A stretch of DNA of 64,000 nucleotides from Actinomadura sp. J1-007 (GTDB lineage Bacteria > Actinomycetota > Actinomycetes > Streptosporangiales > Streptosporangiaceae): NCBI RefSeq assembly GCF_009793335.1, contig NZ_WING01000001.1, positions 1,612,001 to 1,676,000 on the forward strand, given 5' to 3'. This document shows, piece after piece, positions 4,183 through 48,580 of the stretch (position 1 is its first letter; the number at the start of each line of letters is the position of its first letter). The position numbers were made by a program, and so were the translations under genes. The notes below the pieces were generated by a model that worked only from the letters and a program-made list of their open reading frames with translations, made no database searches and was not told the DNA's origin.

Positions 4183-4755
4183 ATGGCACGGCCGAGGACC
4201 TTCGAGGAGGAGCGCGCGGTCGAGGCGGCGATGCGGACGTTCTGGGCGTCCGGCTACGAGGCCACCTCGACCGAGGAGCTGTGCCGGGCCACCGGGCTCG
4301 GCCGCAGCAGCATCTACAACGCGTTCAAGAGCAAGCACGACCTGTTCGAGAAGGCGCTGCGCCGCTACATGGACGAGATGACCGGCGACGTCGTCGCGAT
4401 CCTGGAGAGCGACCTGCCCGTCCGCGAGCGGGTGCGGGCGGTGCTGCGGCGCGCCGTCGACACCGAGGCGGGCGACCTGCCCGGCTGCCTGGTGGTCAAC
4501 GCGATGGTGGAGCTGGCGCCCCGCGACGCGCGGGTCGCGGCGATGCTCGAACGCGACTACGCGGTGCGCCGGGACGCCCTGGAGGCCGCGATCGAGTCGG
4601 GGCGGCGCGCGGGCGAGATCGCCGCCGACCGCGACGCGGCGGGCCTCGCGCACTTCGTCATCGCCACGGTCAGCGGCATGCGCGTCGCGGCCCGCGCGGG
4701 CGCGGACCGCCGCGCGCTGGAGGGGATCGCCGCCTCGGCCATGAACGCGCTCTGA
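4183..4755 (+). CDS. TetR/AcrR family transcriptional regulator
   Basis: A TetR-type repressor of 190 residues. The N-terminal DNA-binding domain (about residues 1-50) has the usual helix-turn-helix ending in GLGRSSIYNAFKSKHDLF; the rest is the helical ligand-binding/dimer domain. The next gene on the same strand is an MFS efflux pump, and both promoters share a 14-base element, so the natural reading is a drug-responsive repressor controlling itself and the pump. The ATG at 4183 is the only sensible start; no strong Shine-Dalgarno sequence is seen. Confidence 0.9.
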   Translation: MARPRTFEEERAVEAAMRTFWASGYEATSTEELCRATGLGRSSIYNAFKSKHDLFEKALRRYMDEMTGDVVAILESDLPVRERVRAVLRRAVDTEAGDLPGCLVVNAMVELAPRDARVAAMLERDYAVRRDALEAAIESGRRAGEIAADRDAAGLAHFVIATVSGMRVAARAGADRRALEGIAASAMNAL

Positions 4756-4809
4756 CCCCACGGGCGGCCGCCCGCACCGCGACGGCCGCCCTTTCTCACG
4801 CCCTTGTTT

Positions 4810-4830
4810 TGTACTGACCTATCTAATACA
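4810..4830. promoter_or_regulatory. Candidate TetR operator, MFS promoter
   Basis: Positions 4810-4830 begin TGTACT and end AATACA, an inverted repeat with matching outer arms only. It lies 12 bases upstream of the MFS start and just upstream of its ribosome binding site (AGGAGG near 4830). The first half repeats the element found in the tetR promoter. Confidence 0.4.
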
Positions 4831-4842
4831 GGAGGCTCCCGC

Positions 4843-6057
4843 ATGCACCGCATGCCACCGGCCGTCCACGTGCTGGGCCTGGCGATCTTCGCCATGGGCA
4901 CCTCGGAGTTCATGCTCTCCGGGCTGCTGCCCGACCTGGCCGCCGACCTCGGCGTCTCGGTCCCCGACGCGGGACTGCTGATCTCCGCGTTCGCCGTCGG
5001 GATGGTGGTGGGCGCGCCCGTCCTCGCGCTCGCCACGCTGCGCCTGCCGCGCCGCACGACGCTGCTCGCGTTCCTCGGCGCGTTCGTCCTCGCGCACGTC
5101 GCAGGAGCGCTCGCCCCGGGGTACGCGCCGCTGTTCGCCACCCGCGTCGCGGGCGCGTTCGTGTACGCCGGGTTCTTCGGGGTCGCGGCCGTCACCGCGG
5201 CGGACATGGTCCCGGCGGGCGCCCGCGGACGGGCCCTCGCCATCGTCACGGCGGGGATCACGCTGGCGACCGTGCTCGGCGTCCCGGCGGGCACGCTCAT
5301 CAGCCAGTACGCGGACTGGCGCGCGGCGTTCTGGACGGTCGCGGCCCTGTCGGCGATCGCGATGATCGGCGTGTTCGCGGCGGTCCCCGCCAAGAGCCGG
5401 ACCGGCCCGGAACGGCGCGCCACGAGCCTGCGCGACGAGCTGCGCCCGATGCGGGACGGCCGGATCTGGGTCGCGTACGCGATCGTCGCGCTCAGCTTCA
5501 GCTCGATGATGGCGACGTTCAGCTACCTCGGCGCGCTGCTCACCGGCACCACCGGCCTGCCCGAGGCGTGGGTCCCGGCCGTCCTCGCCCTGTTCGGCGT
5601 CGGCTCGCTGATCGGCATCGCCGCCGGCGGCCGGATCGCCGACGCGCGCCCGCACGCCCTCCTCGCCGCCGGGATGGCCGGCGTCGTGGCGATCTCCGCC
5701 GCGCTCGCCCTCCTCGCGTCCGTTCCCGCGGCCGTCATCGTGCTCGTGCCGCTGCTCGGCGCGGCGGGCATGGCCACCAACCCGGCGGCGAACGTCCTGG
5801 TCTACGCCCGCGCGGGCCACGGGCGAACGCTGCCCGGCGCGTCGGTCACCTCGGCGTTCAACGTGGGCAACACCCTCGCGCCGTGGCTCGGCGGCCTGGT
5901 GATCGGCGCCGGGTTCGGCTACCGCTCCGTCGGCTGGGTCGGCGCCGCAATGGCCCTCGCGGCCCTCGCCGCCGTCGCACTCTCCCACACCCTCCAAACC
6001 CGCACCCCCGCGCGGGCGCGCGAGACGACCGCCAAGCGCGTCCCCGCACGCACCTGA
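4843..6057 (+). CDS. MFS drug efflux transporter (Cmx/CmrA-like)
   Basis: A 404-residue, 12-segment major facilitator. The first segment carries GTSEFMLSGLLPDLA, typical of the Cmx/CmrA chloramphenicol exporters and the wider AraJ-like group, followed by AFAVGMVVGAP and the LPRRTTLLAF loop. I start at 4843 because AGGAGG sits about 7 bases upstream; an upstream in-frame ATG at 4804 has no such site and would overlap the putative operator. Placed after a tetR gene, it is most likely an inducible multidrug or chloramphenicol exporter. The substrate cannot be read from sequence. Confidence 0.88.
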   Translation: MHRMPPAVHVLGLAIFAMGTSEFMLSGLLPDLAADLGVSVPDAGLLISAFAVGMVVGAPVLALATLRLPRRTTLLAFLGAFVLAHVAGALAPGYAPLFATRVAGAFVYAGFFGVAAVTAADMVPAGARGRALAIVTAGITLATVLGVPAGTLISQYADWRAAFWTVAALSAIAMIGVFAAVPAKSRTGPERRATSLRDELRPMRDGRIWVAYAIVALSFSSMMATFSYLGALLTGTTGLPEAWVPAVLALFGVGSLIGIAAGGRIADARPHALLAAGMAGVVAISAALALLASVPAAVIVLVPLLGAAGMATNPAANVLVYARAGHGRTLPGASVTSAFNVGNTLAPWLGGLVIGAGFGYRSVGWVGAAMALAALAAVALSHTLQTRTPARARETTAKRVPART

Positions 6058-6073
6058 ACGAACGGGGAAGCGG

Positions 6074-6115
6074 GAGGGGCGGCTCACCGATCGAGTGATC
6101 GGGGAGCCGCCCCTC
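6074..6115. terminator. Bidirectional hairpin terminator
   Basis: Perfect 12-base arms GAGGGGCGGCTC (6074-6085) and GAGCCGCCCCTC (6104-6115), with an inner CCGATC/GATCGG stem. It lies between the convergent MFS gene and the M6 protease gene. There is no T-run, as is common in actinomycetes. Confidence 0.8.
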
Positions 6116-6132
6116 AGGGGTCCGGCCTCGGG

Positions 6133-8202
6133 TCAGGGGAGGCGGCAGGTGCCGTAGTCGGTCTTGGTCGGGTCGCTTTCGGAGTTGGCCGTCAGGCGGA
6201 GCTTGGCCTTGCGGTCGGCGCCGGGGGCGGGCTTGGCCCACACCTCGACGTTCTGGCCGCCGCCGTTCGCGGCCGTGGCGAGCTCGTTGGGCAGCCAGGT
6301 CCGCCAGCCGCTCCCCGCCACGTCGGCCTTCAGGCGGAACACGTCGGAGCCGTAGTGGCCGCTGCCGCCCTTGCCGCGGTTGTGCAGCGCCATCGTGCAC
6401 TTGGTCCAGCCGGAGCCCGCGGGCCTGGCGGTGCCCGAGTCGACCTTCACGCCGCGCTTCTGCGGCCCCGCGCCGTCGAGCGAACGGATCGCGACGGTGT
6501 AGGACAGCACGCCCGCGCGGTCGCGCTTGAGGTCCAGGACGTAGAAGTGCAGCCGGTTCTCCTTGTCCACGTACTCGTACTGGCTGCCGCTGTTCGTGCC
6601 CGCGTGGAACAGCGCGTCGGAGAGCTGCCGGTAGTCGCCGATCGTCATCTTCTGCGGCGTGCCGTCCGGCCGGACGAAGTCGACCTTGTCGATGTCCTGC
6701 GGGTTGGCGTCCTTCACCCAGATGAACGGCGCGTCGTCCCTGTTCTTGGTCTTGGAGAGCAGCACGCCGGAGTCGGGCGTGAACGAGTCGAAGCCCATCC
6801 GGTCCACGACCTCGACCGTGTAGTTGTCGTACTTGTGCTTGGCGTCGCCGTCGCACAGCGGGTCCTGGCGCGGGTCGCACGCGGGGCTCTTGTCACCGCC
6901 GGCGCCGAACTTGAGGTTGATGCCCGCCAGCTCGTTCTTCCCCGGTTCGGCGGCACGGGCCGTCACCTTCGCCACGACCGTCCCGGACGCGGCGAGGGCG
7001 TCGCGGTCGAGCTGGAGCACCTTCCCGGCGTCCACGATGCCGAGCTTCAGCTTGTTGCGCAGCGTGTGCTGCGAGCCCATGGACGCGCCGCCCGTCGCGG
7101 GGATCATCCACCGGCTGTGCGGGCCGCCCGGCCCGTTGAAGCTGCCGCGGCTCAGCATCTCCCACGGCCCGGTGTACGCGCGGCGGGGCGGGACGCCGTA
7201 CGGGTTGTTGTAGTTGTCGCCGATGCCGAGGATGTGGCTGAACTCGTGCGCGAACACGCCCTGCCCCGAGCTCTCCGCCTGGGTGGAGCTGCCGGGCACC
7301 GCGTTCGGCCACAGGGTCGAGCCCGCCTGCCAGGACGTCCAGTCCACGTACCGGGTCTTGATCCAGTTGGGCAGGGCCGGGTCGCCCGAGCCCCATTCCG
7401 GCGGGACGTCCTCCTTGGTGGTGAACTTCATCTGCCCGAACTCCTGCCAGGTGGACGACTCGTCCTGCCCGGCGGAGAGGAAGAACACGAAGTCGTACTT
7501 CTTCGCGGTCTCCTCCCCCACGTCCGCGACCCACGCGGCGCGCGCGTCCTCGCGGATGTCGCGCTCGCACTTGTCGCCGGCCGGGCAGCCGGTGCCCTCC
7601 TGGAAGTCGTCCACGCCGTACTCGTGGTCCTTGGCCGGCATCCGGTACGCGCCGAACGCGGTGAGGTCCACGCCGTAGCGGCCGCCGGAGTCCTCCATCC
7701 AGTACTCGTGCAGCGTGTGCCCGTGGTTGAGGTCCTGCGGCTTGTTGAGGAAGTCCTGGTAGAACTTGGCGACCTTGTCGCGCGGCACGTCCCCGACGAC
7801 GGTCGGGTTGCCGAAGATGGTGGAGTTCTTCGGCTGCGTCACCACGAACGGCTGGTTCGGGTAGTCGACCAGCACGACCGCGCCCTTGAAGTCCTTGATC
7901 GAGCCGCGGCGGGACGGGTCCACCCACGACGTGCCGGGGACGGGCTTGTAGTCGTCCCACGTCATGGTGTCGGGCAGCTCGTAGTTCTGCGGGTCGATGG
8001 GCCGCGGCGCGCCGGCCGCGAACGCGCGCGCCCGCTGGCCCTGCTGCCACGGCTGCGTCTGCGGCCAGTGCCGCATCTGCCAGGGATTGGCGGTGGGCTT
8101 CGGAATCGGCGGCTTCGGCTGCGCGGCGGCCGGAACGGCCCCCAGCCCCGCGGCGAGCGCGATCGCCGCGACGGGCACCAGCCAACTCTTCTTGGCGCGC
8201 AT
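6133..8202 (-). CDS. Secreted M6 family metalloprotease (immune inhibitor A-like)
   Basis: A 689-residue secreted zinc protease. Start at 8202 (MRAKKSWLVP), preceded by AGGGGTG; the frame runs further upstream without a good site. Residues 1-28 form a Sec signal peptide ending AAA-Q. The catalytic zinc motif HEFSHILGIGD fits HExxHxxGxxD of the immune inhibitor A/M6 group, and the WEMLSRGSFNGPGG segment after it is typical of the family. The C-terminal region is probably beta-rich and binds substrate or carbohydrate. Secretion suggests a role in extracellular protein degradation. It lies 105 bases downstream of the rraA-like gene on the same strand. Confidence 0.9.
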   Translation of the reverse strand: MRAKKSWLVPVAAIALAAGLGAVPAAAQPKPPIPKPTANPWQMRHWPQTQPWQQGQRARAFAAGAPRPIDPQNYELPDTMTWDDYKPVPGTSWVDPSRRGSIKDFKGAVVLVDYPNQPFVVTQPKNSTIFGNPTVVGDVPRDKVAKFYQDFLNKPQDLNHGHTLHEYWMEDSGGRYGVDLTAFGAYRMPAKDHEYGVDDFQEGTGCPAGDKCERDIREDARAAWVADVGEETAKKYDFVFFLSAGQDESSTWQEFGQMKFTTKEDVPPEWGSGDPALPNWIKTRYVDWTSWQAGSTLWPNAVPGSSTQAESSGQGVFAHEFSHILGIGDNYNNPYGVPPRRAYTGPWEMLSRGSFNGPGGPHSRWMIPATGGASMGSQHTLRNKLKLGIVDAGKVLQLDRDALAASGTVVAKVTARAAEPGKNELAGINLKFGAGGDKSPACDPRQDPLCDGDAKHKYDNYTVEVVDRMGFDSFTPDSGVLLSKTKNRDDAPFIWVKDANPQDIDKVDFVRPDGTPQKMTIGDYRQLSDALFHAGTNSGSQYEYVDKENRLHFYVLDLKRDRAGVLSYTVAIRSLDGAGPQKRGVKVDSGTARPAGSGWTKCTMALHNRGKGGSGHYGSDVFRLKADVAGSGWRTWLPNELATAANGGGQNVEVWAKPAPGADRKAKLRLTANSESDPTKTDYGTCRLP

Positions 8203-8307
8203 GTCACCCCTGTCTCCGTCGTTGACCGCGACGCTAAGGAGACCCGGGTCACACGGCAATGGCCGAGTTAGCCGATCTTGGCGGGACGGCCCTGGCAGCT
8301 CACGCCG

Positions 8308-8787
8308 TCAGAGCAGGTCACGGCCCGCGACGACGATGCCGTCCTCGTCGCTGTAGAGCCGGTCGCCGGGCGCGAACCGCACGCCGCCGAACTCCACCGG
8401 CACGTCCACCTCGCCCGCGCCGTCCTTGGCGCTCTTGCGCGGGTTGGAGCCGAGCGCCTTCGCGCCGAGGTCCATGCCGCGCAGCGCCGCCACGTCCCGG
8501 ACGGCGCCGTTGATCACCACGCCCGCCCAGCCGTTGCGGACGGCCGCCGCCGCGATCTGGTCGCCCATCAGCGCGGAGGCGAGCGAGCCGCCGCCGTCCA
8601 CGACCAGCACCCGGCCCTCGCCGGGCCCGTTGAGCAGCCTCTTCACCAGGCCGTTGTCGCGGTGGCAGCGGACGGTGACGACGGGCCCGGCGAACGCGGC
8701 GCGCCCCCCGTACTGCCGGAACTGCGTCTCGCAGCTGCGCAGCTCGTCCCCGAAGTCGTCGATGAGGTCGGCGGTCGCGAAGTCCAT
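8308..8787 (-). CDS. rraA: RraA-family protein (RNase E regulator / aldolase-like fold)
   Basis: A 159-residue RraA-like protein. The glycine-rich [20 protein letters not shown] and the [10 protein letters not shown] segment with the conserved Arg-Asp pair are diagnostic. Members either bind RNase E and inhibit it or act as 4-hydroxy-4-methyl-2-oxoglutarate/oxaloacetate lyases, and sequence alone does not separate the two. The size matches the family norm of about 160 residues. It stands between the Lrp gene and the metalloprotease gene, all on the minus strand. Confidence 0.88.
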
Positions 8788-8846
8788 GCCCGCAGCCTAC
8801 TGGTGGGTAATCAGGGTGCGCGGACCGGCGGGCGAACGGCGCGGGG

Positions 8847-9308
8847 TCAGGCGGAGGAGGGCGCGTCGATGGGGCGGCCGAGCAGCCGGGACAGCACGAT
8901 CGCGGTCTTGGTCGCGGTGATGTTGTCCTCGCGCCGGAGCCGTTCGAGGGCCTGCTCCAGGTGCTGGATGTCCCGGGCGCGGACGTGCACGAGCGCGCTC
9001 GCGTCGCCGCTCACCGTGTAGGCGGCGACGACCTCCGGATGGCCCCGGACGCTGGAGTAGATCTGCTCGGGGGACGTCGCGCCGGTACAGAAGATCTCGA
9101 TGAACGCCTCGGTCGTCCAGCCGAGCGCGGCCGGGTCCACGACCGCGGCGAAGCCGTTGATCACGCCGTCCGCGCGCAGCCGGTCGACGCGCCGCTTGAC
9201 CGCCGGCGCGGACAGCCCGACCTGATCGCCGATCTGCGCGTAGGAGGCGCGGCCGTCCTCCAGGAGCCGTGCAACGATCCGCCGGTCCAGCTCGTCAAGA
9301 CGCAACAA
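8847..9308 (-). CDS. Lrp/AsnC family transcriptional regulator
   Basis: A 153-residue feast/famine regulator. The N-terminal helix-turn-helix (LDELDRRIVARLLEDGRASY...SAPAVKRRVDRL) is followed by a RAM-type ligand domain with GHPEVVAAYTVSGDASALVH. I choose the tandem TTG codons at 9308/9305 as start because the Lrp domain begins there and GGGGGTG lies just upstream; the frame stays open far upstream without support. Divergent from rocD, so it probably controls ornithine/arginine catabolism in response to an amino acid, as Lrp-type regulators next to rocD commonly do. Confidence 0.9.
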   Translation of the reverse strand: MLRLDELDRRIVARLLEDGRASYAQIGDQVGLSAPAVKRRVDRLRADGVINGFAAVVDPAALGWTTEAFIEIFCTGATSPEQIYSSVRGHPEVVAAYTVSGDASALVHVRARDIQHLEQALERLRREDNITATKTAIVLSRLLGRPIDAPSSA

Positions 9309-9485
9309 ATAACACCCCCGAAGTCGGTTTTCGTCATTGGTCGTTGGTTGATCCCGAACATACGCTGTGAGCAGGGCCCGCGGCCACCGGGCCGCGTGCC
9401 ACCCCCTCCCCTCGGCACCGGGCCACCGTCCGGTGCGTTCAGCGATCCCGGCCGGACCGGCCGGGCCGATCCGCGAAGGAGCGTC
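9309..9485. promoter_or_regulatory. Divergent lrp-rocD promoter region
   Basis: The 177 bases between two divergent genes. For rocD, TTGGTC (9337-9342) and TACGCT (9361-9366) are 18 bases apart and could be -35 and -10. The AT-richer 9300-9360 stretch, with repeated TTGGT words, is the likeliest Lrp binding area. No clean palindrome is seen. Confidence 0.4.
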
Positions 9486-10679
9486 GTGAGCCGATCCGAC
9501 CAGTTGCGGGCCCTGTCCGAGGAGCACAGCGCGCACAATTACCACCCGCTGCCGATCGTGATCGCCGAGGCCGACGGGGCCTGGGTCACCGACGTGGAGG
9601 GCCGCCGCTACCTGGACATGCTCGCCGCGTACTCCGCGGTCAACTTCGGCCACCGCAACCCCCGGCTGACCGCCGCCGCGCAGCGGCAGCTGGGCCGCGC
9701 CACCCTGGTCAGCCGCGCGTTCGAGCACGACCAGTTCGGCCCGTTCACCGCCGAGCTGGCGCACCTGTGCGGCAAGGACATGGTGCTGCCGATGAACAGC
9801 GGCGCCGAGGCCGTCGAGACGGCGCTGAAGACCGCCCGCAAGTGGGGGTACGAGGTCAAGGGCGTGCCCGCCGGGCAGGCCAACATCGTCACGTTCGAGG
9901 GCAACTTCCACGGCCGCACCACCACGATCGTCAGCTTCTCGACCGACGCCGAGGCCCGGGAGTCCTACGGCCCGTACACGCCGGGCTTCCGCACCGTCCC
10001 GTACGGCGACGTCGAGGCGCTGCGGGCCGCGATGGACGAGGCGACCGTCGGCGTGCTGGTCGAGCCGATCCAGGGCGAGGCCGGGGTGGTCGTGCCGCCG
10101 GACGGGTTCCTGACCGCCGTGCGCGAGCTGTGCACGGCCAACGGCAGCCTGATGATCGCCGACGAGATCCAGACCGGGCTCGGCCGCACCGGCGCCACGT
10201 TCGCCTGCGAGCACGAGGGCGTCGTGCCGGACGTCTACATCCTCGGCAAGGCGCTCGGCGGCGGCATCATGCCCGTCTCGGCGGTCGTCGCGGACGTGGA
10301 CGTGCTCGGGGTGTTCAAGCCGGGCCAGCACGGCTCGACGTTCGGCGGCAACCCGCTGGCCTGCGCGATCGGCCGCGAGGTGATCGCGATCCTGAAGACC
10401 GGCGAGTTCCAGGAACGCTCCCGCGAGCTCGGCGCGCACCTGCACGAGCGGCTGCGCAAGCTGCCGTCCGACGCCGTCCGCGAGGTGCGCGGGCGCGGAC
10501 TGTGGGCGGGCATCGAGCTGTACGGCCGGGCGCGCCCGGTGAGCGAGCGGCTGATGGACCTCGGCGTGCTCGCGAAGGAGACGCACGAGACGACGATCCG
10601 GCTGGCGCCGCCCCTGGTGATCAGCCGCGAGGACCTGGACTGGGCGCTGTACCAGCTGGAGATCGCCCTCAAGGGCTGA
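9486..10679 (+). CDS. rocD: Ornithine--oxo-acid aminotransferase
   Basis: A 397-residue class III PLP aminotransferase converting ornithine and 2-oxoglutarate to glutamate semialdehyde and glutamate. The N-terminal NYHPLPIVIAEADG segment is typical of ornithine aminotransferase. Further marks are MNSGAEAVETALK, EGNFHGRTTTIVSFS, EPIQGEAG, ADEIQTGLGRTG, and the PLP lysine in ILGKALGGG. Start GTG 9486 with GAAGGA 6 bases upstream. The divergent Lrp gene is the probable regulator. Followed by a strong hairpin terminator, so it is probably a single-gene transcript. Confidence 0.93.
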   Translation: MSRSDQLRALSEEHSAHNYHPLPIVIAEADGAWVTDVEGRRYLDMLAAYSAVNFGHRNPRLTAAAQRQLGRATLVSRAFEHDQFGPFTAELAHLCGKDMVLPMNSGAEAVETALKTARKWGYEVKGVPAGQANIVTFEGNFHGRTTTIVSFSTDAEARESYGPYTPGFRTVPYGDVEALRAAMDEATVGVLVEPIQGEAGVVVPPDGFLTAVRELCTANGSLMIADEIQTGLGRTGATFACEHEGVVPDVYILGKALGGGIMPVSAVVADVDVLGVFKPGQHGSTFGGNPLACAIGREVIAILKTGEFQERSRELGAHLHERLRKLPSDAVREVRGRGLWAGIELYGRARPVSERLMDLGVLAKETHETTIRLAPPLVISREDLDWALYQLEIALKG

Positions 10680-40140: not shown

Positions 40141-40638
40141 ATGACGCACCCTTCCGACCCCGGCCAGCCGCACCACCCCCAGCCGGCCCCACCGCCGCCC
40201 CGCCCCCCTGGCGGCCCCACCCCCTACGGCCCACCCCCCCAAACCCGTCCCGGCCCCGGTCCCGTCCCGGGGCCCCGTCCCTCCGACACCGGCCAGACCC
40301 CCGTCCCGCAAGGCGGCTGGGTCCCCCCGGAACGCACCGACAAGGGCCTCTTCGGCGCCCTGCTCGACGCCAACTTCGACTACCTGGTGACGCCGAAGCT
40401 GATCAAGGTCTTCTATATCCTCGCCCTGCTGCTGATCAGTCTGTTCGCGCTGATGGTCGTGGCGCTCGGCATCTGGGTGGCGCAGTTGCGCAACGGGTGG
40501 CTGCTCGGCCTGCTCATCATGCTCAGCTCCCCGGTCATGTGGTTCTTCCAGGCGATTCTCGCCCGCATCTTCATGGAGGCCGTGGTGGTGCGGTTCAAGG
40601 GGGTCGAGCACCTGCGGGTGATCAAGGACAAGATCTAG
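40141..40638 (+). CDS. DUF4282 domain membrane protein
   Basis: A 165-residue protein. The first 65 residues are Pro-rich (repeated PPP/PG), then FGALLDANFDYLVTPKLIKVFY leads into two membrane segments (ILALLLISLFALMVVALGIWV and LLGLLIMLSSPVMWFFQAILA), the DUF4282 layout. Function is unknown in the family. ATG 40141 is the natural start, with CAGGAG upstream. It ends 47 bases before the kinase cassette and may be co-transcribed with it. Confidence 0.82.
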   Translation: MTHPSDPGQPHHPQPAPPPPRPPGGPTPYGPPPQTRPGPGPVPGPRPSDTGQTPVPQGGWVPPERTDKGLFGALLDANFDYLVTPKLIKVFYILALLLISLFALMVVALGIWVAQLRNGWLLGLLIMLSSPVMWFFQAILARIFMEAVVVRFKGVEHLRVIKDKI

Positions 40639-40684: not shown

Positions 40685-43190
40685 GTGCAGGTGGCCGACT
40701 TCGAGGAGCCAGGGTCCGGAGGCGACGCTCCACCGCGTGAGACGCGACGGGATCCCGGTGTGACGCATCGCGATCCGGAGGTTCCCGCGCCGCGCGCGGG
40801 CGGGCCTGCGGACACGCGGCGGGACGGGGCCGGGGGCGCGCAGGGCGGCGGGACGTTGATGCGGCTGCCGGCCGTTCTCGCCGAACGGTACGAGGTCGTC
40901 GCCGAGCTTCCCGTGCAGGGCGCCGAGTCCGACCTGCTGCTCGTGCGCGACGTGCGCGACGTGCGCGACGCACGGGCCCCACGCGACGCGCGCGGCGGCG
41001 AGTACGTGGTGAAGGTGTTCCGGCGCGGCTACCACGCCGACCGGGACGTGTGGGCGAAGCTGCCCGCGCTGGGCTCGCCGAACGTGCTGCGGATCCTGGA
41101 GACCGGGCACGCCGACGGCCGCGACTACGAGATCACCGAGTACGCGCCGGACGGGAACCTGCGGGCGCTGATGGCGGGGCCGCTGCCCGCCGAGGCCGTC
41201 ACCGAGATCGCGGCGCAGCTCGCGTCCGGGCTGGCGGCGCTGCACCGGGTCGGGATCGTGCACCGCGACCTGAAGCCGGAGAACGTGCTCGTCCTCGCCG
41301 CCGCGCCGCTGCGGCTGGCGATCGCGGACTTCGGGCTGAGCCGGGTCCTGGACGAGAGCGTGGTGTTCGCCTCGTCGTCGCGGACGCTGGCGTACGCGGC
41401 GCCGGAGTCGCTGTCGGGGCAGGTGTCCCCGGCGCGCGACTGGTGGTCGCTGGGGATGATCGTCCGGGAGCTGGTGACCGGGCGCGCGCCGTTCCTGGGG
41501 TTGAGCGAGACGGCGGTGGTCGACCATCTCGCGACGCGTCCGGTGAGCGCCGACGACGTTCCGGACGGGCGGTTGCGGCTGCTCTGCCAGGGGCTGCTGA
41601 CGCGCGACCCGCGCGCCCGGTGGGGCGGGGAGCAGCTCGCGGAGTGGCTCGGCGGAGGCGCGCCCCCCGTCGCGAAGGAGGCCCCGAGACCAGTCGCCCC
41701 GGCCGCTCCGCCCGGCGCGGGCGTGCCGTTCAACGGGCGGCGGTTCACCGACCGGGCCGAGTTGGCGCGCGCTCGTCGAGCGGTGGGACTACGCGGCGCT
41801 GTACTTCTTCGGACGGGGCGAGACGGGCGAGGCGTGGCGGAGCCTGCGCGACTGGCTCGCGGAGGTCCCGGACGACAGCCGGATCGGGCTGGTCGACGGC
41901 TACCTGACCACCGGGCTCGCGCCGGACGTGAAGCTGCTGCACCTCGTCCGGTGGCTGGACCCGTCGATGCCGCCGCACTTCCTCGGCCGCCGCGTCACCG
42001 CGGACGACCTGCCGGTGCTGGCGGCGCTGGCCGGGGACGCGGCGCATCCCGACCACCGCACCGCGTGCCTGCTCGGCCGCGAGCTGTGGGAGCAGAGCCT
42101 GCTGCGCGTCCTGGCGGGGTTCGAGCAGGGGCACGACCTGGCGGGGATCGACGACCAGTGGCGCGTCCACGTGCGGGCCTGGAACGACCTGGCGCGCTGG
42201 CTCCGCGAGCACGAGGCCACGCCGGCGGGTCTCGCCGCGCGCCTTCCGGCAGCGGGCGGGAGCGGTGACGGCGTGCCGGTCGCCAGTGGGGCCCCGGTCG
42301 CCGGGGGCGTCGCGGTCGCCGGGGGGATCCCGGCGGACGATCCGCCCGTCGTCCTGCTGACGTTGCTGGCGCTGGCCGCGCGTCCGGCGGAGACGCGGCG
42401 CGCGCTCGCGGACGCCGCGTCGCGGGCCCGCGCGTCCGTACGGGGCGAGGTGCCGTGGTTCGCGTGGATGGCGGACGGCGCGGGCGACGACCCGTTGCGG
42501 CTCCTCGCGGTCGCCCGCGCGGCGCCCGAGGCCGCCCTGGAGGGCGAGGCGCGGGCGCGGGAGCTGCACGCCGCCGAGCAGCGGTCGGCCGCGCTGCGCG
42601 CCCAGCGGGCCGAGCGGGAACGGCTCCGGCTCGCGGGACGCGGCTCCGCCGTCGCCCGCGCCGCCGCGTGGTCGGTGCCGTTCCTCGCGCTGTGGCTGGC
42701 CGGGAGCTGGGTGGTCGGCGCCGTGTTCGGCGAGAAGGAGTCGGGGACGTCCAGTGTGGGCGCGCCGAGCGGCGGGTCGGGCCTCGGGTTCGGCGCGCTG
42801 GCGGCCGTCGCCGTGCTGGTGTGGGCGGTGCAGTGCGGGGCCGAGGTCCTGCTGGCGCGCACGCAGGGCACGGACTACCTGCCGTACGGCCCGTGGTCGT
42901 GGCTGTCCAAGCTGCTGGGCGCGGGCGGCCGAGGGCTGTCCAAGGCCGGGCGGGCGGTGTCGGGCGCCGCCAGGCAGACGCGGGGGCGCGGATGCGGGCT
43001 GATGCTGATCGCGGCGATCGTTCCGTTGCTGGGCTTCCTGCTGCTGTCCATGCTGATGTCGTCCATCGCGGGCGTGCTGTGGGTGCTGGTCATGGTCGCC
43101 GGGGCGGGCGCGCACGCGGTCGCCGCCGGGTTCCGGCTGCACGAGTGGCGGCAGGCCCGCGAGGAGGAAGAGCGCCGGGCCGCGGCATGA
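40685..43190 (+). CDS. Membrane-anchored Ser/Thr kinase, first gene of signalling cassette; frame break near 41766
   Basis: About 834 residues when the break at 41764-41771 is repaired (either two bases lost from a CG repeat or one G gained). The kinase domain is near residues 65-320: VVKVF lysine, VHRDLKPENVLV, IADFGLSRV and LAYAAPES. It has no canonical glycine-loop sequence. After a Pro linker comes a helical domain of about 200 residues (from WDYAALYFFGRGE through WNDLARWL) that I do not recognise. The C terminus has at least four hydrophobic segments (WSVPFLALWLAGSWVVGAVF, GALAAVAVLVWAVQ, and two between 43000 and 43130). Head of a five-gene run reading the same way. Confidence 0.8.
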
Positions 43191-43229
43191 ATCACTGGGC
43201 CCCGGCATGACCGTTCCGGGAGGGACAAC

Positions 43230-44387
43230 GTGAGCAGCGGCGTCGAGGCCGACATCGCACTGGACGCGGCGGTCGTCCTCACCCTGGGGATGAACCGCGT
43301 CCTCGGCCGTACGGCGGGGGCGGCGGGACGCGGCGCCGAGGCCCTGGCCGCGCTCGCGGGCGAACGCGCCGAGGCCCGGGCCGCCGCGCTCGCCGAGGCG
43401 CGCACGTACGAGCGGGCGCTGCGCGAGGTCCTCGAACGCAACGCCCGCATCGACGCGCTCGCGCGGTCCCGCGACAGGATCGGCGCCGACGCGGAGCTGC
43501 CCGCGCCGCTGACGCCCGCCGACGAGACGCCGGACCAGCTGACCGCGTGGTGCGCCGCGACCGACCGCCTGCTGGACGAGGCGGAGCGGCGGCTCTCCGA
43601 GCATCTCGCCGCCGAGGTGACGTCGCAGATCTTCACCGCGCCCGCCGAAGGGCTCCGCGCCGACACCGGCCCGTCCGCCCCGTCCGGCGAACGGCACCAG
43701 GAGCGGGAGCAGGACGGGCCCGAGGGCGGGAGCGGACTCCAGGCGACGCTCGAACGGGTGCTGGCGCGCCTGCTGCCCGACGCGGCCGAGGCCGAGCGCC
43801 GCGCGGTCGCCGAGGCGGCGCGGCTCCTCGCGGACGCGGGCGCAGGCGAGGCCGAGGCCGCGCTGACGGAGGTGCGGCTGCGGGTGCGGGACGCCAACCG
43901 CCGCACCGAGGAGCGCCGCGAGGCGCTGCGCCGCGCCGAGGCCGAACGGGACGCCGCCGAGCAGGCCGAGGCCGAGCGCCGCTACGTGCTCGACTCGATC
44001 ACGGCCGCGTTCACCGGGATGGGGTACGAGGTCGACGCCGGGTTCGAGACGCTGACCGCGTCGGACGGCACGGTCGTGCTGACCCGCGGGAGCTGGCCCG
44101 ACCACAGCGTGAAGATGCGGGTGGACGGCGTCGGGCAGGTCCGCGCGTCGATGGTCCGGGAGCGTCCGGCCGAGAGCGAGGACGACCGCCGGGTCGACGT
44201 CGAGCGCGAGCGCGAGTGGTGCGAGGCGTTCGAGGCCGCGCGCGACCGGCTGGCCGGGGCGGGGATACGCTCCGACGTGACGTGGCGGCTGGAGCCGGGG
44301 GTGCGGGAGCTGCCGGTCGCCGCCCGCGCGCGGCGGCCCGCGGCCCGCGCCGGACGGCGCGAGCGCGGCCGCGAACGCGAGAAGTGA
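43230..44387 (+). CDS. Coiled-coil protein of the kinase cassette
   Basis: A 385-residue protein of unknown family. The N-terminal 100 residues and residues about 175-260 are strongly charged Ala/Glu/Arg helices, probably coiled coils (RTEERREALRRAEAERDAAEQAEAERR). A small C-terminal domain (AAFTGMGYEVDAGFETLTASDGTVVLTRG, about 265-350) is alpha/beta in character and ends in an Arg-rich tail. Start GTG 43230 with GGAGGG upstream. Between the kinase and the AAA+ protein, it could be their adaptor; that is inference from position. Confidence 0.75.
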   Translation: MSSGVEADIALDAAVVLTLGMNRVLGRTAGAAGRGAEALAALAGERAEARAAALAEARTYERALREVLERNARIDALARSRDRIGADAELPAPLTPADETPDQLTAWCAATDRLLDEAERRLSEHLAAEVTSQIFTAPAEGLRADTGPSAPSGERHQEREQDGPEGGSGLQATLERVLARLLPDAAEAERRAVAEAARLLADAGAGEAEAALTEVRLRVRDANRRTEERREALRRAEAERDAAEQAEAERRYVLDSITAAFTGMGYEVDAGFETLTASDGTVVLTRGSWPDHSVKMRVDGVGQVRASMVRERPAESEDDRRVDVEREREWCEAFEAARDRLAGAGIRSDVTWRLEPGVRELPVAARARRPAARAGRRERGREREK

Positions 44388-44422
44388 CCGGAGCAGAGCG
44401 AGCCGCGAGCGGAGTCAGCCTG

Positions 44423-46342
44423 ATGAGCATCGAATCACCGACCCTCGGGGGACGGCTGCCGGGGTGGCCGCCGTTCATCCGCGAGCTGGACGCGACGCTG
44501 TCGGTGCACTCCCAGTACGTGCTGTCCGGCAACCTCTACGACAGCTTCCTCGCGCCGCCGACCGACGCCGTCGGGCCCGCGCGGCTGCTGCCGCTGCGCG
44601 ACCTGCTGTGGGAGTCGCTGCGCTCCAGCGGGTCGTCCTGCATGGTCGTGTACGACCCGGTGGACGGCCTCCAGGTGTATCCCGACACCGGCGACGAGAT
44701 CGCCGAGGAGGCCGCGAAGGCGGCGGAGAAGCTCCTCGGCAAGCTGAAGGCCGACGAGAAGCCGTCGCTGGAGGGCCTCACCCGCCACCTGTCGGGGGTG
44801 GCGCGGCCCCAGGAGAACCTGCGCGCCGCGTTCGTCATCGACTCGGCGTCGCGGATCGCGCGGACCCCGACCGACCTGGAGCCCGCCGAGCGCGACTTCT
44901 TCCGCTACTGCGCGAAGCTGTCGCGCAGCGCCCGCCCCGTGCGGGTGGTGGGCGCGCGGCCGAAGCCGCTCTACAACCCGATCATCTGGCTGGTGGAGCG
45001 GCCCGGCGACCTGCCGCCCTGGCTGACCAACGACAACGAGAACATCCGCGAGATCACCATCCCGCGCCCGCACCTCGGCGACCGGCAGGAGACCGCGCGG
45101 CTGCTCGCCCGCGCGTTCGGGGTGAGCGACGTCGGCGCGGACGAGGCCGCCGCGGCGGCGTGCGACGCGTTCGCCGAGCAGGCCGACGGGCTCACCCTCC
45201 AGTCGATGATCGAGGTGACCCGGCTCGCCAAGGAGCGCAACGTCAGCCTGGCCGACCTGCCCGACGCCGTCCGCACCTACAAGCTCGGGGTGCTCGACAA
45301 CCCGTGGAGCCGCGGGCACCTGCGCCGCCGCGTCCTGGAGGGCGAGCGGAAGGTCCCCGAACGGGTGATCGGGCAGCGGCAGGCCGTCACCAAGACCCTC
45401 GACATCCTCAAGCGGGCGGTCCTCGGCCTGTCGGGCGCGCAGGCGACGCGGTCGGGGAGCCGTCCGCGCGGGGTGCTGTTCTTCGCCGGGCCGACGGGCA
45501 CCGGCAAGACCGAGCTGGCCAAGGCGATCACCGAGCTGGTCTTCGGGGACGAGTCGGCCTACCTGCGGTTCGACATGAGCGAGTTCTCCGCCGAGGGGTC
45601 GGGCGACCGGCTGATCGGGTCGCCGCCCGGGTACGTGGGGCACGAGGCGGGCGGCGAGCTGACCAACGCCGTCCGCGAGGACCCGTTCCGGGTGATCCTG
45701 TTCGACGAGATCGAGAAGGCGCACCCGCGGATCCTCGACAAGTTCCTCCAGATCCTGGAGGACGGGCGGCTCACCGACGGCCGCGGCAACACCGTGCACT
45801 TCTCCGAGGCCATCCTGATCTTCACCTCGAACCTCGGGATGTACGTCCCGGGCCGCGACCTGACGGCCCGTTCGGACGGCGGGGGGCACGCCCCGCAGGG
45901 CCGGGTGCAGAACATCGCGCCGGGCATGACCTACGACGAGATCGAGCAGCGGATCAAGGGCGCGGTCGCCGACCACTTCACCGACGTGCTGAACCGCCCC
46001 GAGCTGCTCAACCGGTTCGGCGACAACATCGTGGTGTTCGACTTCATCGCCGGCGAGGCCGCCGACAAGATCTTCGACCTCCAGTTCGCCAACATCTGCC
46101 GCCGCGTCACCGACGAGCACCGCCTCGTCCTCGCGGTGAAGGGCGAGGCGCTCCAGACGCTGCGCGAGTGGTGCACCGCCGAGCTCGACAAGGGCGGCCG
46201 GGGCATCGGGATGGCGCTGGAGTCGCACTTCGTCAACCCGCTGGCCCGCGCGCTGTTCGACCGCGACCTGAAGCCGGACGAGCGGATCACCGTGTCGGCG
46301 ATCCGGCGCGAGGGCGGCATCGTCCACCTGGACCTCCAGTGA
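44423..46342 (+). CDS. ClpB/ClpA-like AAA+ ATPase with degenerate first module
   Basis: A 639-residue protein. The C-terminal half is a Clp D2-type AAA+ module: GPTGTGKTELAKAI Walker A, VILFDEIEKAHP Walker B, DMSEFSAEGSGDRLIGSPPG pore-loop region, IFTSNLG sensor 1 and LNRPELLNRFGDNIVVF with the arginine finger. The N-terminal half looks like a decayed AAA module: MVVYDPVDGL where Walker A would be, AAFVIDSASRI like Walker B, and NIREITIPRPHLGDRQETARLLARAF like the lid. No ClpP-binding IGF/IGL loop is seen, so it is more a remodelling enzyme than a protease partner. The radical SAM gene overlaps its stop by 4 bases. Confidence 0.85.
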   Translation: MSIESPTLGGRLPGWPPFIRELDATLSVHSQYVLSGNLYDSFLAPPTDAVGPARLLPLRDLLWESLRSSGSSCMVVYDPVDGLQVYPDTGDEIAEEAAKAAEKLLGKLKADEKPSLEGLTRHLSGVARPQENLRAAFVIDSASRIARTPTDLEPAERDFFRYCAKLSRSARPVRVVGARPKPLYNPIIWLVERPGDLPPWLTNDNENIREITIPRPHLGDRQETARLLARAFGVSDVGADEAAAAACDAFAEQADGLTLQSMIEVTRLAKERNVSLADLPDAVRTYKLGVLDNPWSRGHLRRRVLEGERKVPERVIGQRQAVTKTLDILKRAVLGLSGAQATRSGSRPRGVLFFAGPTGTGKTELAKAITELVFGDESAYLRFDMSEFSAEGSGDRLIGSPPGYVGHEAGGELTNAVREDPFRVILFDEIEKAHPRILDKFLQILEDGRLTDGRGNTVHFSEAILIFTSNLGMYVPGRDLTARSDGGGHAPQGRVQNIAPGMTYDEIEQRIKGAVADHFTDVLNRPELLNRFGDNIVVFDFIAGEAADKIFDLQFANICRRVTDEHRLVLAVKGEALQTLREWCTAELDKGGRGIGMALESHFVNPLARALFDRDLKPDERITVSAIRREGGIVHLDLQ

Positions 46343-47170
46343 GCCCGCCCGGCCCCGCGGACCCCGCTGCGGACCGCGCTCCCGGCCCCGCGGACCCCGC
46401 CTCCGGCCCCGGGCCCGCGGGCTCCGGCTCCGAGGGGCCGCGCCGGGACGGCGGGGACGGGCCGGCGCTGCTGCTGGCGAAGGCGCACTACCCGGTCACC
46501 ACGCTCGGGCCCGGCACCCGCGCGGGCATCTGGACGCAGGGCTGCACGCTGCACTGCCCCGGGTGCCTGTCCAGGGACACCTGGGACGCCGATCCGGGCC
46601 GGGCCGTGCCCGTGGCGGCGGTGCTGGGCTGGCTGGCGTCCCTGCCCGGCCCGGTGGACGGCGTGACGATCTCGGGGGCGAACCGTTCCAGCAGCCGGAG
46701 GCCCTGGCGGCGCTGCTGCGCGGGATCCGCGCGTGGCGGGACGGCCTCCGCCGTGAGACGATTCCGTTGGACATACTCGTCTACAGCGGATATGTCTACA
46801 CTCGGCTCTCGCGCTCCTCCGGGACGCGCGAGATCATGAGCATGTGCGACGCCGTCATCACGGGGCCGTACGTCGACCGGCTGAATCCGGAGGCGGGACA
46901 CTCCGGGAGTGGCTCTCTACTCTGGAGGGGGTCGGCCAACCAGCGCGTCGTTCCGATCTCCCCGCTCGGGAGCGGCGGTACGGAGCAGCGGCCGGCGTCG
47001 TGCAGACTGAGGAAGACGCAGGGCCCCGAGTGCAGGTGTCCGTGGACGAGGGGCCGGAGGGAAGGCGGGTGTACTACATCGGGATCCCGCGAAGGGGTGA
47101 CATGGAGCACCTCACATCGACGCTCGAACGCGCCGGGGTGCGCTCGGGGGATGTGTCATGGCGACCTTGA
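46339..47170 (+). CDS. Radical SAM activase-like protein (NrdG type), frame breaks near 46674 and 46968
   Basis: About 277 residues when one G is restored in each of the runs 46674-46678 and 46968-46970. After a Pro/Gly-rich N terminus of 45 residues, GIWTQGCTLHCPGC carries the CX3CX2C ligands of the 4Fe-4S cluster. TISGGEPFQQPEAL is the SAM-binding GGEP motif, and LDILVYSGYVY, CDAVITGPYVD and LWRGSANQRVV are NrdG-like. The C terminus (VYYIGIPRRGDMEHL) is an addition not found in NrdG. GTG 46339 overlaps the AAA+ stop (GTGA), and the end overlaps the next ATG by 13 bases. No glycyl-radical enzyme is in view. Confidence 0.82.
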
Positions 47171-48404
47171 ACTGTCCTGTCTGTGACGAGCCGTTCCAGC
47201 AGGGCGATCTGCTCTGCCTGAGCTGCGGCGCCAACCTGGCGCGCGCCGGCGGCGGCGCCGCGCGGCGTCCGGGCCCGGGCGGCTACGACCAGGCTCCGGG
47301 CGGGTACGACCAGGCTCCCGGCGGCTACAACCAGCCACCTCCCGGTTACGAGCACCAGCAGCAGGGCCAGCCGTACCAGCAGGCGCCCCCGCAGCACCAG
47401 GCTCCTCCGCAGCACCAGGCTCCGCAGCCCCCGGCCGACCAGTGGGGCGCTCCGCCGCCCCAGCAGCAGGCGCCGCCGCAGCATCAGGCTCCGCAGCACC
47501 AGCCCGACCAGTGGGGGCACCGCCTCCGCAACAGCAGGCACCCCCGCAGCCTCAGGCCGACCAGTGGGGAGCTCCGCCGCCCCACCACCAGGCGCCGCCG
47601 CAGCACCAGGCACCGCAGCCTCCCGCCGACCAGTGGGGCGCTCCGCCACCGCAGCAGCAGGCACCGCATCAGCACCAGGCACCGCAGCCCCAGGCCGACC
47701 AGTGGGGGGCACCGCCCCCGCAACAGCAGGCACCCCCGCAGCCTCAGGCCGACCAGTGGGGCGCTCCGCCGCCCCAGCAGCAGGCGCCGCCGCAGCACCA
47801 GCCCGACCAGTGGGGAGCGCCGCCGGCGCACGACCAGCAGTACTCGCCGCCGCCCGGCCCGGCCGACCACCAGTACCAGCAGCCGCCCCAGGGGCAGCAC
47901 CAGCCGCCGATGCCGCCGCCGCACGGCCGCGAGGCGACGCTCCTCCCGCCCGAGCAGCAGCACGGCGGGGCGCCGGGCCAGCGCCCGCACGGCAGCGACA
48001 GCACGGCGTTCATGTGCCCCTACTGCGAGGCGGTGCTGACCAACCCGGGCGCCGCGCAGTGCGACTCGTGCCTGCGGCCGCTGCCGCAGAAGGGCACGCC
48101 CGTGCTGCGGATGATGTTCCCGGGCGGCGAGCTGAAGGTCTCGGTCGGCCAGCACCTGGTGCTCGGCCGCGACGCGGGCCAGTCGCCGGTGGCCGCGACG
48201 TTCACGCAGTACGACAACGTGTCGCGGCGGCACTCGACGGTCTGGCTCGACCCGTCCGGCACCGCCTGGGTCCGCGACGAGGGCTCGACCAACGGCACGT
48301 TCGTCAACGGCGAGCGGCTGCCCCGCGGGGTGGAGGCGCCGCTGCGCGACGGCGACCAGCTCCGCCTGGCCGCCGACGTGACGGGCACCGTCCAGCTCAA
48401 CTAG
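47158..48404 (+). CDS. Double zinc-ribbon, Pro/Gln-repeat, FHA-domain protein; frame break near 47513
   Basis: About 415 residues when one G is restored in the GGGGG run at 47513-47517. The first zinc ribbon is NCPVC...CLSCG (Cys 6, 9, 20, 23). About 220 residues of Pro/Gln-rich repeats follow, built on DQWGAPPPQQQAPP. A second ribbon is MCPYCEAVL...QCDSC. The C-terminal FHA domain has LVLGRDAGQ, NVSRRHSTVWL and DEGSTNGTFVNGERL, so it should bind phosphothreonine, presumably a product of the cassette's kinase. Last gene of the cassette, followed by a strong hairpin at 48433-48472. Confidence 0.85.
47387..47815 (+). repeat. Pro/Gln-coding imperfect tandem repeats
   Basis: At least seven imperfect units on the pattern GACCAGTGGGG-GC(A/T)CCGCC-(CAGCAG)-GC(A/G)CC encode DQWGAPPPQQQAPPQ. 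Unit length varies, so this is protein low complexity, not a CRISPR or minisatellite with a fixed period. Such repeats also promote assembly error, and one frame break lies here. Confidence 0.8.
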
Positions 48405-48428
48405 CAGTGCCGCTCAACTAGCGGTGCC
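48395..48428. repeat. 17-base tandem duplication over a stop codon
   Basis: GCTCAACTAGCAGTGCC (48395-48411) is followed by the same 17 bases with one change (48412-48428). It spans the stop codon of the FHA gene; each copy contains an in-phase-looking TAG. Confidence 0.85.
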
Positions 48429-48432
48429 GCGC

Positions 48433-48472
48433 GGGCGGCGGGTCCGGGGCCGTACGGCCCGGCCCGCCGCCC
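48433..48472 (+). terminator. Terminator of the kinase cassette
   Basis: Arms GGGCGGCGGG (48433-48442) and CCCGCCGCCC (48463-48472) are perfect, and the inner part (CCGGGGCCGTACGGCCCGG) is nearly self-complementary too. Confidence 0.75.
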
Positions 48473-48504
48473 GTTGCGCATTCGTGATCACCGCCGCGCC
48501 ATCC

Positions 48505-48580
48505 GGATGATCTTTCCGCACGTCTCTACTGCGCGCGCCGCGTCCGGCGGCGCGCACCGGAACGAGCCGAAAGATCATCC
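48505..48580 (+). promoter_or_regulatory. Nested RNA hairpin ending at the start codon of 48581
   Basis: GGATGATCTTTC (48505-48516) pairs perfectly with GAAAGATCATCC (48569-48580), whose last base touches the ATG. Nested inside, GCGCGCCGC (48533-48541) pairs with GCGGCGCGC (48547-48555) around a 5-base loop. The outer stem would hide the ribosome-binding region, suggesting translational control. No T-run follows, so a terminator is unlikely. Confidence 0.6.

What the first reader, a model, noticed from the sequence alone, without database searches (positions are those of the whole stretch)
40685..48404. Five-gene kinase / coiled-coil / ClpB-like / radical SAM / FHA cassette
Seen: five same-strand genes with tight spacing or overlaps (40-base gap, 35-base gap, 4-base overlap, 13-base overlap) and one terminator at the end. 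Known: FHA domains read phosphothreonine, Hanks kinases make it, Clp D2-type ATPases remodel proteins, NrdG-like radical SAM enzymes install or trigger radicals. Inferred: a membrane kinase signals through the FHA/zinc-ribbon protein to an unfoldase and a radical-SAM effector, possibly a stress or biological-conflict response. I know of no named system with this exact set.
Basis: partly seen in the sequence, partly recalled or inferred. Interest (0 to 1): 0.8.

Follow-up and report, generated by a model that had tools for sequence, protein, structure and literature searches.

The report
Kinase-controlled radical-SAM and unfoldase cassette

Summary
The cassette is real, but in this assembly three of the five genes (kinase, radical SAM, FHA) have broken reading frames at four places; relatives have whole genes. 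The ClpB-like ATPase is in 36 of 36 genomes of the genus (Actinomadura/Spirillospora by named hits), and all five genes lie in the same order in 28 of 31 flanks examined. Outside the genus the set is rare but crosses phyla. (1) Kinase N-terminal tails carry repeated T-x-x-D motifs, enriched at +3, in FHA-bearing loci and not in the four tails without FHA: expected for FHA docking. (2) The radical SAM resembles NrdG, yet its usual partner NrdD is absent from all 59 genomes searched. (3) The coiled-coil protein starts with a conserved Met-Ser-Gly and has a near-invariant Cys; it is the likely substrate. In a prospective test, 8 of 8 testable new loci had the motif (other residues in place of Gly: at most 5 of 8). 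Sister copies carry RES, Macro-like, TPR-S or helicase-nuclease parts of conflict systems; none was seen beside this core-genome copy, so defence is unproven here. The papers searched describe no system with this set.

The parts
40685..43190 (+). Membrane Ser/Thr kinase, reading frame broken between 41752 and 41766 in this assembly; catalytic HRDLKPEN and DFG present in the N part; hydrophobic segments near the C end (seen by eye)
   Evidence: Pkinase E 5e-33; HRD/DFG; break; unbroken 769-795 aa in three relatives
40742..40825 (+). Kinase tail stretch with three T-x-x-D motifs (TRRD, THRD, TRRD), predicted FHA docking sites
   Evidence: Sequence; enrichment at +3
43230..44387 (+). Coiled-coil protein, 385 aa, no Pfam, NCBIfam or PADLOC family; predicted substrate of the radical SAM enzyme
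   Evidence: Pfam; NCBIfam, PADLOC, scanned as its L037 ortholog; alignment A4; model pLDDT 78
43230..43241 (+). N-terminal MSSG, the conserved MS(S/T)G motif
   Evidence: 27 of 36 homologs against 2 of 130 partner proteins; 9 of 884 other called genes in these loci
44220..44222 (+). Codon of the near-invariant Cys331 in the C-terminal domain
   Evidence: C in 34 of 36 rows
44423..46342 (+). ClpB-like AAA+ ATPase: D1-like fold without P-loop, then active D2 with pore loop
46339..47173 (+). NrdG-like radical SAM enzyme, reading frame broken twice in this assembly
   Evidence: Fer4_12 E 1e-9 on the first piece; breaks
46543..46566 (+). CX3CX2C cluster motif (CTLHCPGC) of the radical SAM enzyme
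   Evidence: Sequence; motif in 26 of 28 homologs, the other two called with late starts
47158..48404 (+). Zinc-ribbon / low-complexity / FHA protein, reading frame broken between 47238 and 47811
   Evidence: FHA E 8e-14; break; zinc ribbon seen by eye
48428..48478 (+). GC-rich hairpin after the last gene, possible terminator without T-tract
   Evidence: Fold z -3.2 for 48405-48520; not found by the T-tract scan

Best explanation
The five genes form one conserved cassette that likely encodes a phosphorylation-controlled protein-remodelling machine in which a radical SAM enzyme is predicted to modify a coiled-coil protein and a ClpB-like ATPase would then remodel it. Shown: the genes stay together across genera and phyla; the ATPase has one ring with and one ring without the ATP-binding motif; the radical SAM keeps its cluster motif, but no NrdD for it to activate was found in the genus; most coiled-coil homologs keep an N-terminal Ser-Gly and a C-terminal Cys; kinase tails of FHA-bearing loci are enriched in T-x-x-D. 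Inferred: the kinase phosphorylates its own tail; the FHA/zinc-ribbon protein docks there and brings the ATPase and radical SAM to the membrane; the radical SAM acts on the coiled-coil protein, at the N-terminal Gly or the conserved Cys; the ATPase threads or releases it. Output here: an unknown core-genome stress or envelope response; in sister loci the same chassis seems coupled to conflict effectors.
For: Linkage: 28 of 31 genus flanks hold all five in order; ATPase in 36 of 36 genus genomes. Of 80 named loci kept from a radical SAM bait scan, 20 score at least 200 bits with my radical SAM profile; within the fetched locus (up to 10 kb each side) 19 of these 20 have the ATPase (L088 ends at its contig edge), 17 a kinase, 11 an FHA gene; of the 60 weaker ones 5 have the ATPase. 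In 396 phylum genomes drawn evenly, 6 (own genome included) have the ATPase N-domain and all 6 have the radical SAM within about 3 kb. Docking: T-to-D spacing of +3 seen 27 times against 6.1 expected in 14 non-redundant tails and 60 against 8.6 in 24 genus tails, other spacings to D at chance; not enriched in 4 tails without FHA. Radical SAM without NrdD: 0 of 59 genomes, control positive in 6 of 14 genomes; Gly_radical in 3 of 59, one in the genus. Substrate: MS(S/T)G start in 27 of 36 coiled-coil proteins against 2 of 130 partners and 9 of 884 other genes; an MSG start in 13 of 38 weaker bait loci without a glycyl-radical motif, other M-S-X starts at most 5 of 38; prospective 8 of 8 testable Burkholderiales loci (control). 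ATPase fold.
Against: No biochemistry. The MSG motif is absent as called in several members (L041, L080, L093, L096, L097, L182, L185). With the strict ATG filter the strong-side loci L077-L097 give MSG in only 7 of 21, against up to 5 of 21 for other M-S-X, because GTG and MSSG starts are not counted. The 0 of 21 for loci with a glycyl-radical motif is a weak control, since hardly any M-S-X start passes the filter there (1 hit in all). Simple presence or absence of T-x-x-[DE] does not differ between loci with and without FHA (9 of 11 against 3 of 4, Fisher p 1.0); only density does, and the set without FHA is 4 tails, two of them near-identical. Six divergent kinases show +3 enrichment only when Q is allowed. 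Small excesses at other spacings appear when E or Q is allowed (for example +4 D/E in genus tails, 23 against 13.6). FHA pThr+3 preference is not universal (PMC4037201 passages). In most proteobacterial loci my FHA profile found nothing. In five Streptomyces loci the kinase and another gene lie between radical SAM and ATPase. Here three genes are broken, so this copy may be dead.
Confidence: 0.5

Rival explanations
1. The cassette is an anti-phage or kin-conflict defence system, with the coiled-coil/ATPase complex as sensor and a variable effector.
For: Relatives sit with RES genes (L043-L045, L077-L082), Macro-like genes (L043, L044, L077-L079, L081, L082) and TPR-S (L044), with GAP1-N2, HSP70 and PP2C genes (L042), and in alpha-proteobacteria with a kinase fused to DUF4011, SF1 helicase and MTES_1575 nuclease (L097, L103); a like-sized gene lies in this position on a conjugative Rhizobium plasmid. 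Rare outside the genus (5 of 395 other phylum genomes). The ATPase D2 matches the candidate-defence model PDC-M37B at 107 bits over residues 352-471.
Against: The window ATPase is in all 36 genus genomes, beside the same flanking genes in the three relatives compared, and no RES, Macro-like, TPR or GAP1 label occurs in the 31 genus flanks; PADLOC has no model for the coiled coil, radical SAM or FHA proteins tested, and its kinase and ATPase matches cover single generic domains.
Confidence: 0.25
2. The radical SAM is a genuine glycyl-radical-enzyme activase and its target lies elsewhere in the genome.
For: It matches NrdG best (84.8 bits, TIGR02491, protein of L037) and keeps GGEP and GS-NQ motifs.
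Against: NrdD found in 0 of 59 genomes; a Gly_radical domain in only 3 of 59, one of them in the genus; score below the NrdG cut-off of 126.1.
Confidence: 0.07
3. The five genes are merely co-transcribed housekeeping genes without a joint function.
For: The genus copy is in a stable chromosomal neighbourhood in the relatives compared.
Against: The same types occur in different orders yet stay together in other families and phyla, and T-x-x-D density tracks the FHA gene.
Confidence: 0.08
4. In this strain the cassette is a decaying pseudogene array.
For: Four frame breaks in three of five genes while the flanking TypA and LytR-CpsA-Psr genes are continuous. Genome completeness 90.9 against 93-99 in the other 35 genus genomes fits assembly indels as well.
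Against: Pieces keep 65-96% identity and codon bias, and no stop lies inside the shifted pieces read.
Confidence: 0.15

Closest known systems
NTP-dependent conflict systems of Kaur et al. 2020 (PMC7159879; section 29 read whole, other passages by search)
   Same: Chaperone-type ATPase plus kinase, PP2C, vWA, GTPase/GAP1 or HSP70 parts; one passage pairs a radical SAM with a presumed peptide substrate in FtsH ternary systems; L042 has GAP1-N2, PP2C and HSP70 by Pfam, a kinase by profile, and vWA and GTPases by eye
   Different: The passages seen name no ClpB-D2 ATPase with radical SAM, FHA and this coiled-coil protein; no vWA, MoxR, GTPase or GAP1 gene was seen in the window cassette
Type VI secretion threonine phosphorylation pathway (PpkA, PppA, Fha, ClpV; PMC5995506 passages)
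   Same: Kinase, FHA protein, ClpB-family ATPase; PP2C in some relatives (L039, L040)
   Different: ClpV model far below cut-off (185 against 885 bits); no radical SAM in that pathway (recalled)
TerY-P triad and CoCoNuT systems (PMC11090510 passages)
   Same: PP2C, kinase and a vWA-like gene stand in a row in one diverged relative (L042)
   Different: No vWA or PP2C in the window cassette; the find for radical SAM and Clp in that paper gave no hit
NrdG, activase of class III ribonucleotide reductase
   Same: CX3CX2C, GGEP, GS-NQ motifs, size
   Different: No NrdD found in the genus; paired instead with an MSG coiled-coil protein
ClpB/Hsp104 disaggregase
   Same: Active D2 with pore loop; overall two-ring fold
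   Different: First ring lacks the P-loop in 38 of 38; no ClpB equivalog score

Membership tests
ClpB disaggregase | Two ATP-binding rings with P-loops | tested here: not met
   0 of 38 homologs have a P-loop in the first 280 residues; 38 of 38 in D2
ClpB disaggregase | Equivalog score (TIGR03346) | tested here: not met
   235 against cut-off 1232 bits
ClpB-type D2 unfoldase | Walker A/B, aromatic pore loop, ClpB D2 fold | tested here: met
   Walker A 38, Walker B pattern 36, pore loop 35 of 38; fold
NrdG activase | CX3CX2C cluster motif | tested here: met
   26 of 28, two called with late starts
NrdG activase | Partner NrdD in the genome | tested here: not met
   0 of 59 genomes
NrdG activase | TIGR02491 curated cut-off | tested here: not met
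   84.8 against 126.1 bits, protein of L037
T6SS threonine phosphorylation module | ClpV (TIGR03345) score | tested here: not met
   185 against cut-off 885 bits
T6SS threonine phosphorylation module | T6SS core genes in the genome | not tested
   No search was run
MoxR-vWA or GAP1-N2 conflict systems | vWA with MoxR, or GTPase with GAP1, in the cassette | tested here: not met
   Nine gene pieces or neighbours at 38.4-49.3 kb scanned with Pfam show none; relative L042 does have GAP1-N2
TerY-P triad | vWA, PP2C and kinase with zinc ribbon | tested here: not met
   Kinase only in the window cassette
Anti-phage defence | Protection against phage | not testable with these tools
   Needs a plaque assay
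FHA-kinase signalling pair | FHA domain binds phosphothreonine of the partner kinase tail | not testable with these tools
   Only the motif enrichment was tested

The most novel reading that the evidence does not exclude
A new kind of radical-SAM maturation system: NrdG-like enzymes freed from glycyl-radical enzymes act on the N-terminal Ser-Gly of a coiled-coil protein, and AAA+ motors of two types (ClpB-D2 or SpoVK/CbxX) then load or fire that protein as the core of many bacterial signalling and conflict systems, with FHA-read phosphorylation as the switch in this branch.
Probability: 0.3. Interest if true: 0.87.

Novelty: new variant of a known kind. Interest (0 to 1): 0.72.

Why it matters
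If right, it gives a substrate to a group of radical SAM enzymes that annotation calls NrdG-like or '4Fe-4S single cluster domain' although no class III ribonucleotide reductase was found in these genomes, and it links radical chemistry to AAA+ remodelling and Ser/Thr kinase signalling in one operon. The two key steps, a modified coiled-coil N-terminus or Cys and FHA binding to TRRD phosphopeptides, are each a single experiment. It also shows a chassis that is core genome in one genus and conflict-associated in others.

Tried and rejected
Canonical NrdG role: rejected for the genus. ClpB ortholog: rejected. A presence/absence link between FHA and T-x-x-[DE] was tried and failed; density and spacing tests held. 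Phage carriage: a viral-contig scan with the ATPase N-domain gave one relative of four pattern matches, L170, not studied; the phage search with the radical SAM matched 1706 records, and most of the 20 listed are annotated as activators of the anaerobic ribonucleotide reductase. Coiled-coil fold: Foldseek found no PDB match at E 0.001 or better; this does not show a new fold. Homology of the coiled-coil proteins of SpoVK-type loci to ours: a group of five matched at 92.9% with Cys on Cys, but single sequences mostly did not, and the first group test (97.9%) is void because it contained L129, which is also in A4. Literature: eight answered searches, six of them for the gene set and its relatives, gave no paper with the set; the 2012 Ter-systems paper is not held, so prior description there cannot be excluded. 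Gene calls in relatives come from my own small gene finder, which mis-starts some genes. Rows left out: 18 of 55 kinases (10 without a recognised catalytic motif, 8 with called tails under 15 residues); six of the ten were tested apart with tail ends set by eye; L177 was dropped from the prospective count because its contig begins at the radical SAM gene. 'Coiled coil' in the scans means a long ORF rich in A, E, L, R, K, Q and D, not a coiled-coil prediction.
Full report
What is in the sequence. Between 40685 and 48404 five genes lie on the + strand: kinase, coiled coil, ClpB-D2-type ATPase, radical SAM, FHA protein. The coiled-coil (43230-44387) and ATPase (44423-46342) are whole. The other three are broken in this assembly: tblastn with proteins of three relatives places the kinase break between 41752 and 41766, the radical SAM breaks near 46674-46677 and 46961-46973, and the FHA break between 47238 and 47811, while the flanking LytR-CpsA-Psr and TypA genes are continuous.

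Whose genome and how constant. Named best hits are Actinomadura and Spirillospora. The ATPase is found near full length in 36 of 36 genomes of the genus, once in two pieces. Of these I fetched flanks for 31; 28 of 31 have kinase, coiled coil, ATPase, radical SAM and FHA in that order; the three others (L069, L070, L071) lack one or two labels in my gene calls and were not followed up. Outside the genus it is rare: 7 of 296 class genomes, the own genome included, at E 1e-75, and 6 of 396 phylum genomes, again with the own one, have the ATPase N-domain. In all six the radical SAM lies within about 3 kb of the ATPase, directly adjacent in four; in L042 the coiled-coil gene and in L038 the FHA gene and one more lie between. 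A seventh genome, G670, has radical SAM, kinase and an ATPase cut by its contig end.

Across phyla. With profiles built from nine loci, the window included, 20 of the 80 score at least 200 bits for the radical SAM; 19 of 20 have the ATPase in the fetched locus, 17 of 20 a kinase, 11 of 20 an FHA gene. Hosts include Streptomyces, Pseudonocardia, Undibacterium, Gallionella, Methylocaldum and Bradyrhizobium. Of the other 60, 5 have the ATPase. Relatives vary the theme: PP2C added (L039, L040); RES genes in all nine of L043-L045 and L077-L082, Macro-like genes in seven of them, TPR-S in L044; GAP1-N2, HSP70 and PP2C in L042, with vWA and GTPases by eye; a giant kinase fused to DUF4011, SF1 helicase and MTES_1575 nuclease in alpha-proteobacteria (L097, L103). 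A like-sized gene follows the radical SAM on a conjugative Rhizobium leguminosarum plasmid.

Kinase and FHA. The window kinase starts with TRRD, THRD and TRRD motifs; relatives have TQRD five times (L040), TRLD/TQLD/TELD (L038) and so on. In 14 non-redundant tails T followed by D at +3 occurs 27 times against 6.1 in shuffles, and 60 against 8.6 in 24 genus tails; spacings +1, +2 and +4 to +7 are not enriched for D, though +4 is for D or E together in genus tails (23 against 13.6). Split by partner, 11 tails from FHA-bearing loci show 23 against 5.8, and 4 tails without FHA 1 against 1.0. Six divergent kinases show +3 enrichment only when Q is allowed (15 against 6.5). A cruder presence/absence test showed no difference (9 of 11 against 3 of 4). 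Rad53 FHA1 prefers Asp at pThr+3, though the rule is debated (PMC4037201 passages). I infer autophosphorylated docking sites.

The radical SAM. Homologs carry CX3CX2C (26 of 28), GGEP and NrdG-like GS-NQ motifs (28 of 28), but the L037 protein falls below the NrdG cut-off. NrdD was found in 0 of 59 genomes searched, with positive controls in 6 of 14 genomes; a Gly_radical domain occurs in 3 of 59, one of them in the genus. Its target should be something else.

The coiled-coil protein. It has no Pfam, NCBIfam or PADLOC family. 27 of 36 homologs start with MS(S/T)G, mostly MSSG in the genus and MSGP outside it, although outside the genus clade they are only 17-30% identical to the window protein; radical SAM, ATPase, kinase and FHA proteins of the same loci do so in 2 of 130, and all other called genes of these loci in 9 of 884. 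Some exceptions were start-calling errors: L083, L087 and L099 have an upstream in-frame MSG start. Cys331 is conserved in 34 of 36. Among the 59 weaker bait loci L098-L156, an ATG-started MSG ORF of coiled-coil-like composition lies within 5 kb in 13 of 38 loci without a glycyl-radical motif nearby; no other M-S-X start exceeds 5 of 38. The 21 loci with such a motif gave 0, but hardly any M-S-X start passes the filter there, so they are a weak control. In the 21 loci L077-L097 the same strict filter gave 7 for MSG and up to 5 for others. Several of the weaker loci have a SpoVK/CbxX-type tandem ATPase instead of the ClpB type. Their coiled-coil proteins, as a group of five, match ours at 92.9%.

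Prospective test. After forming the hypothesis I searched 300 genomes of the order of G693, an Undibacterium (Burkholderiales), itself included: 12 new genomes matched, 9 of them strongly. One of the 9 contigs starts at the radical SAM gene; the other 8 all have an MSG-start gene (7, L179) and a ClpB-type ATPase next to the radical SAM. These loci are new: none shares 500 bases at 80% identity or more with earlier loci. With the same lenient filter (ATG, GTG or TTG start) other residues in place of Gly reach at most 5 of 8; with ATG only, MSG is in 7 of 8 and others in at most 2. In 7 of 8 loci the coiled-coil profile also matches an ORF. Of the three weak matches, L180 and L181 have a glycyl-radical motif and no MSG; L182 has the ATPase and a candidate coiled coil starting MSA. 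In a Lachnospiraceae sample (150 genomes; 13 loci fetched) two have MSG or MSSG (L186, L187), one has the ATPase with MSSS (L185), ten have neither MSG nor a ClpB-type ATPase by my profiles.

A second module in the same genome. At G000:C1:2589500-2607500 (L165) a radical SAM, an MSGAK coiled-coil protein and a SpoVK-type tandem ATPase stand in a row with a zinc-ribbon protein and two further genes that look GTPase/GAP1-like by eye; Pfam names none of those three.

Mechanism. I commit to a membrane kinase whose phosphorylated tail recruits the FHA/zinc-ribbon protein and with it the ATPase and radical SAM; the radical SAM modifies the coiled-coil protein; the ATPase remodels it. The physical steps are all inferred. 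For the window copy, core-genome status argues for a housekeeping or stress output; for sister loci, RES, Macro-like, TPR-S, GAP1-N2 and nuclease neighbours argue for conflict.

Known or new. Kaur et al. 2020 (PMC7159879: section 29 whole, other passages) describe related chassis, including kinase, PP2C and vWA with GAP1-N2, and a radical SAM presumed to modify a peptide in FtsH ternary systems, but in what I read not this set. PMC11090510 passages describe TerY-P and SpoVK extensions; PMC5995506 passages the T6SS pathway. Searches found no paper with the set; PMC8195603 was seen in listings only. The 2012 Ter-systems paper could not be read.

Noticed in passing
L165 (G000:C1:2589500-2607500), 3-9700: A second, diverged radical SAM module in the same genome: radical SAM, MSGAK coiled coil, SpoVK/CbxX-type tandem ATPase, zinc-ribbon protein, and genes that look GTPase-like and GAP1-like by eye.
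   Followed up: partly
L043, L044, L045: Three genomes of the genus carry a second five-gene cassette in another order (coiled coil, ATPase, radical SAM, FHA, kinase) beside RES-domain genes (all three), Macro-like genes (L043, L044) and large TPR genes (L044, L045; TPR-S by Pfam in L044).
   Followed up: partly
L114 4643-6536, L117 7418-9884: Lachnospiraceae-type versions of the radical SAM/MSG module sit next to runs of TerD-like genes (named by eye from sequence).
   Followed up: no
L103 6429-12692, L097 11395-17001, L157 9662-15922: Kinase fused to DUF4011, SF1 helicase and MTES_1575 nuclease in one giant protein in alpha-proteobacteria (Pfam for L103 and L097; L157, on a conjugative Rhizobium plasmid, is alike by position and size).
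   Followed up: partly
window 40141-40638: A DUF4282 membrane gene lies just before the kinase; its last part matches genes before the kinase in three relatives, and a similar-looking gene follows the FHA gene in L037 (12130-12555).
   Followed up: no
window 47250-47950: The FHA protein has a long Q/P-rich repeat (QAPPQHQAPQ...DQWGAPP) between zinc ribbon and FHA domain; one frame break lies in it.
   Followed up: no
L183 8831-9043, L111 8913-9122, L105 9231-9455: Three other NrdG-like radical SAM loci without an MSG partner have a tiny neighbouring protein with a GIKG--C motif, possibly another substrate type.
   Followed up: no
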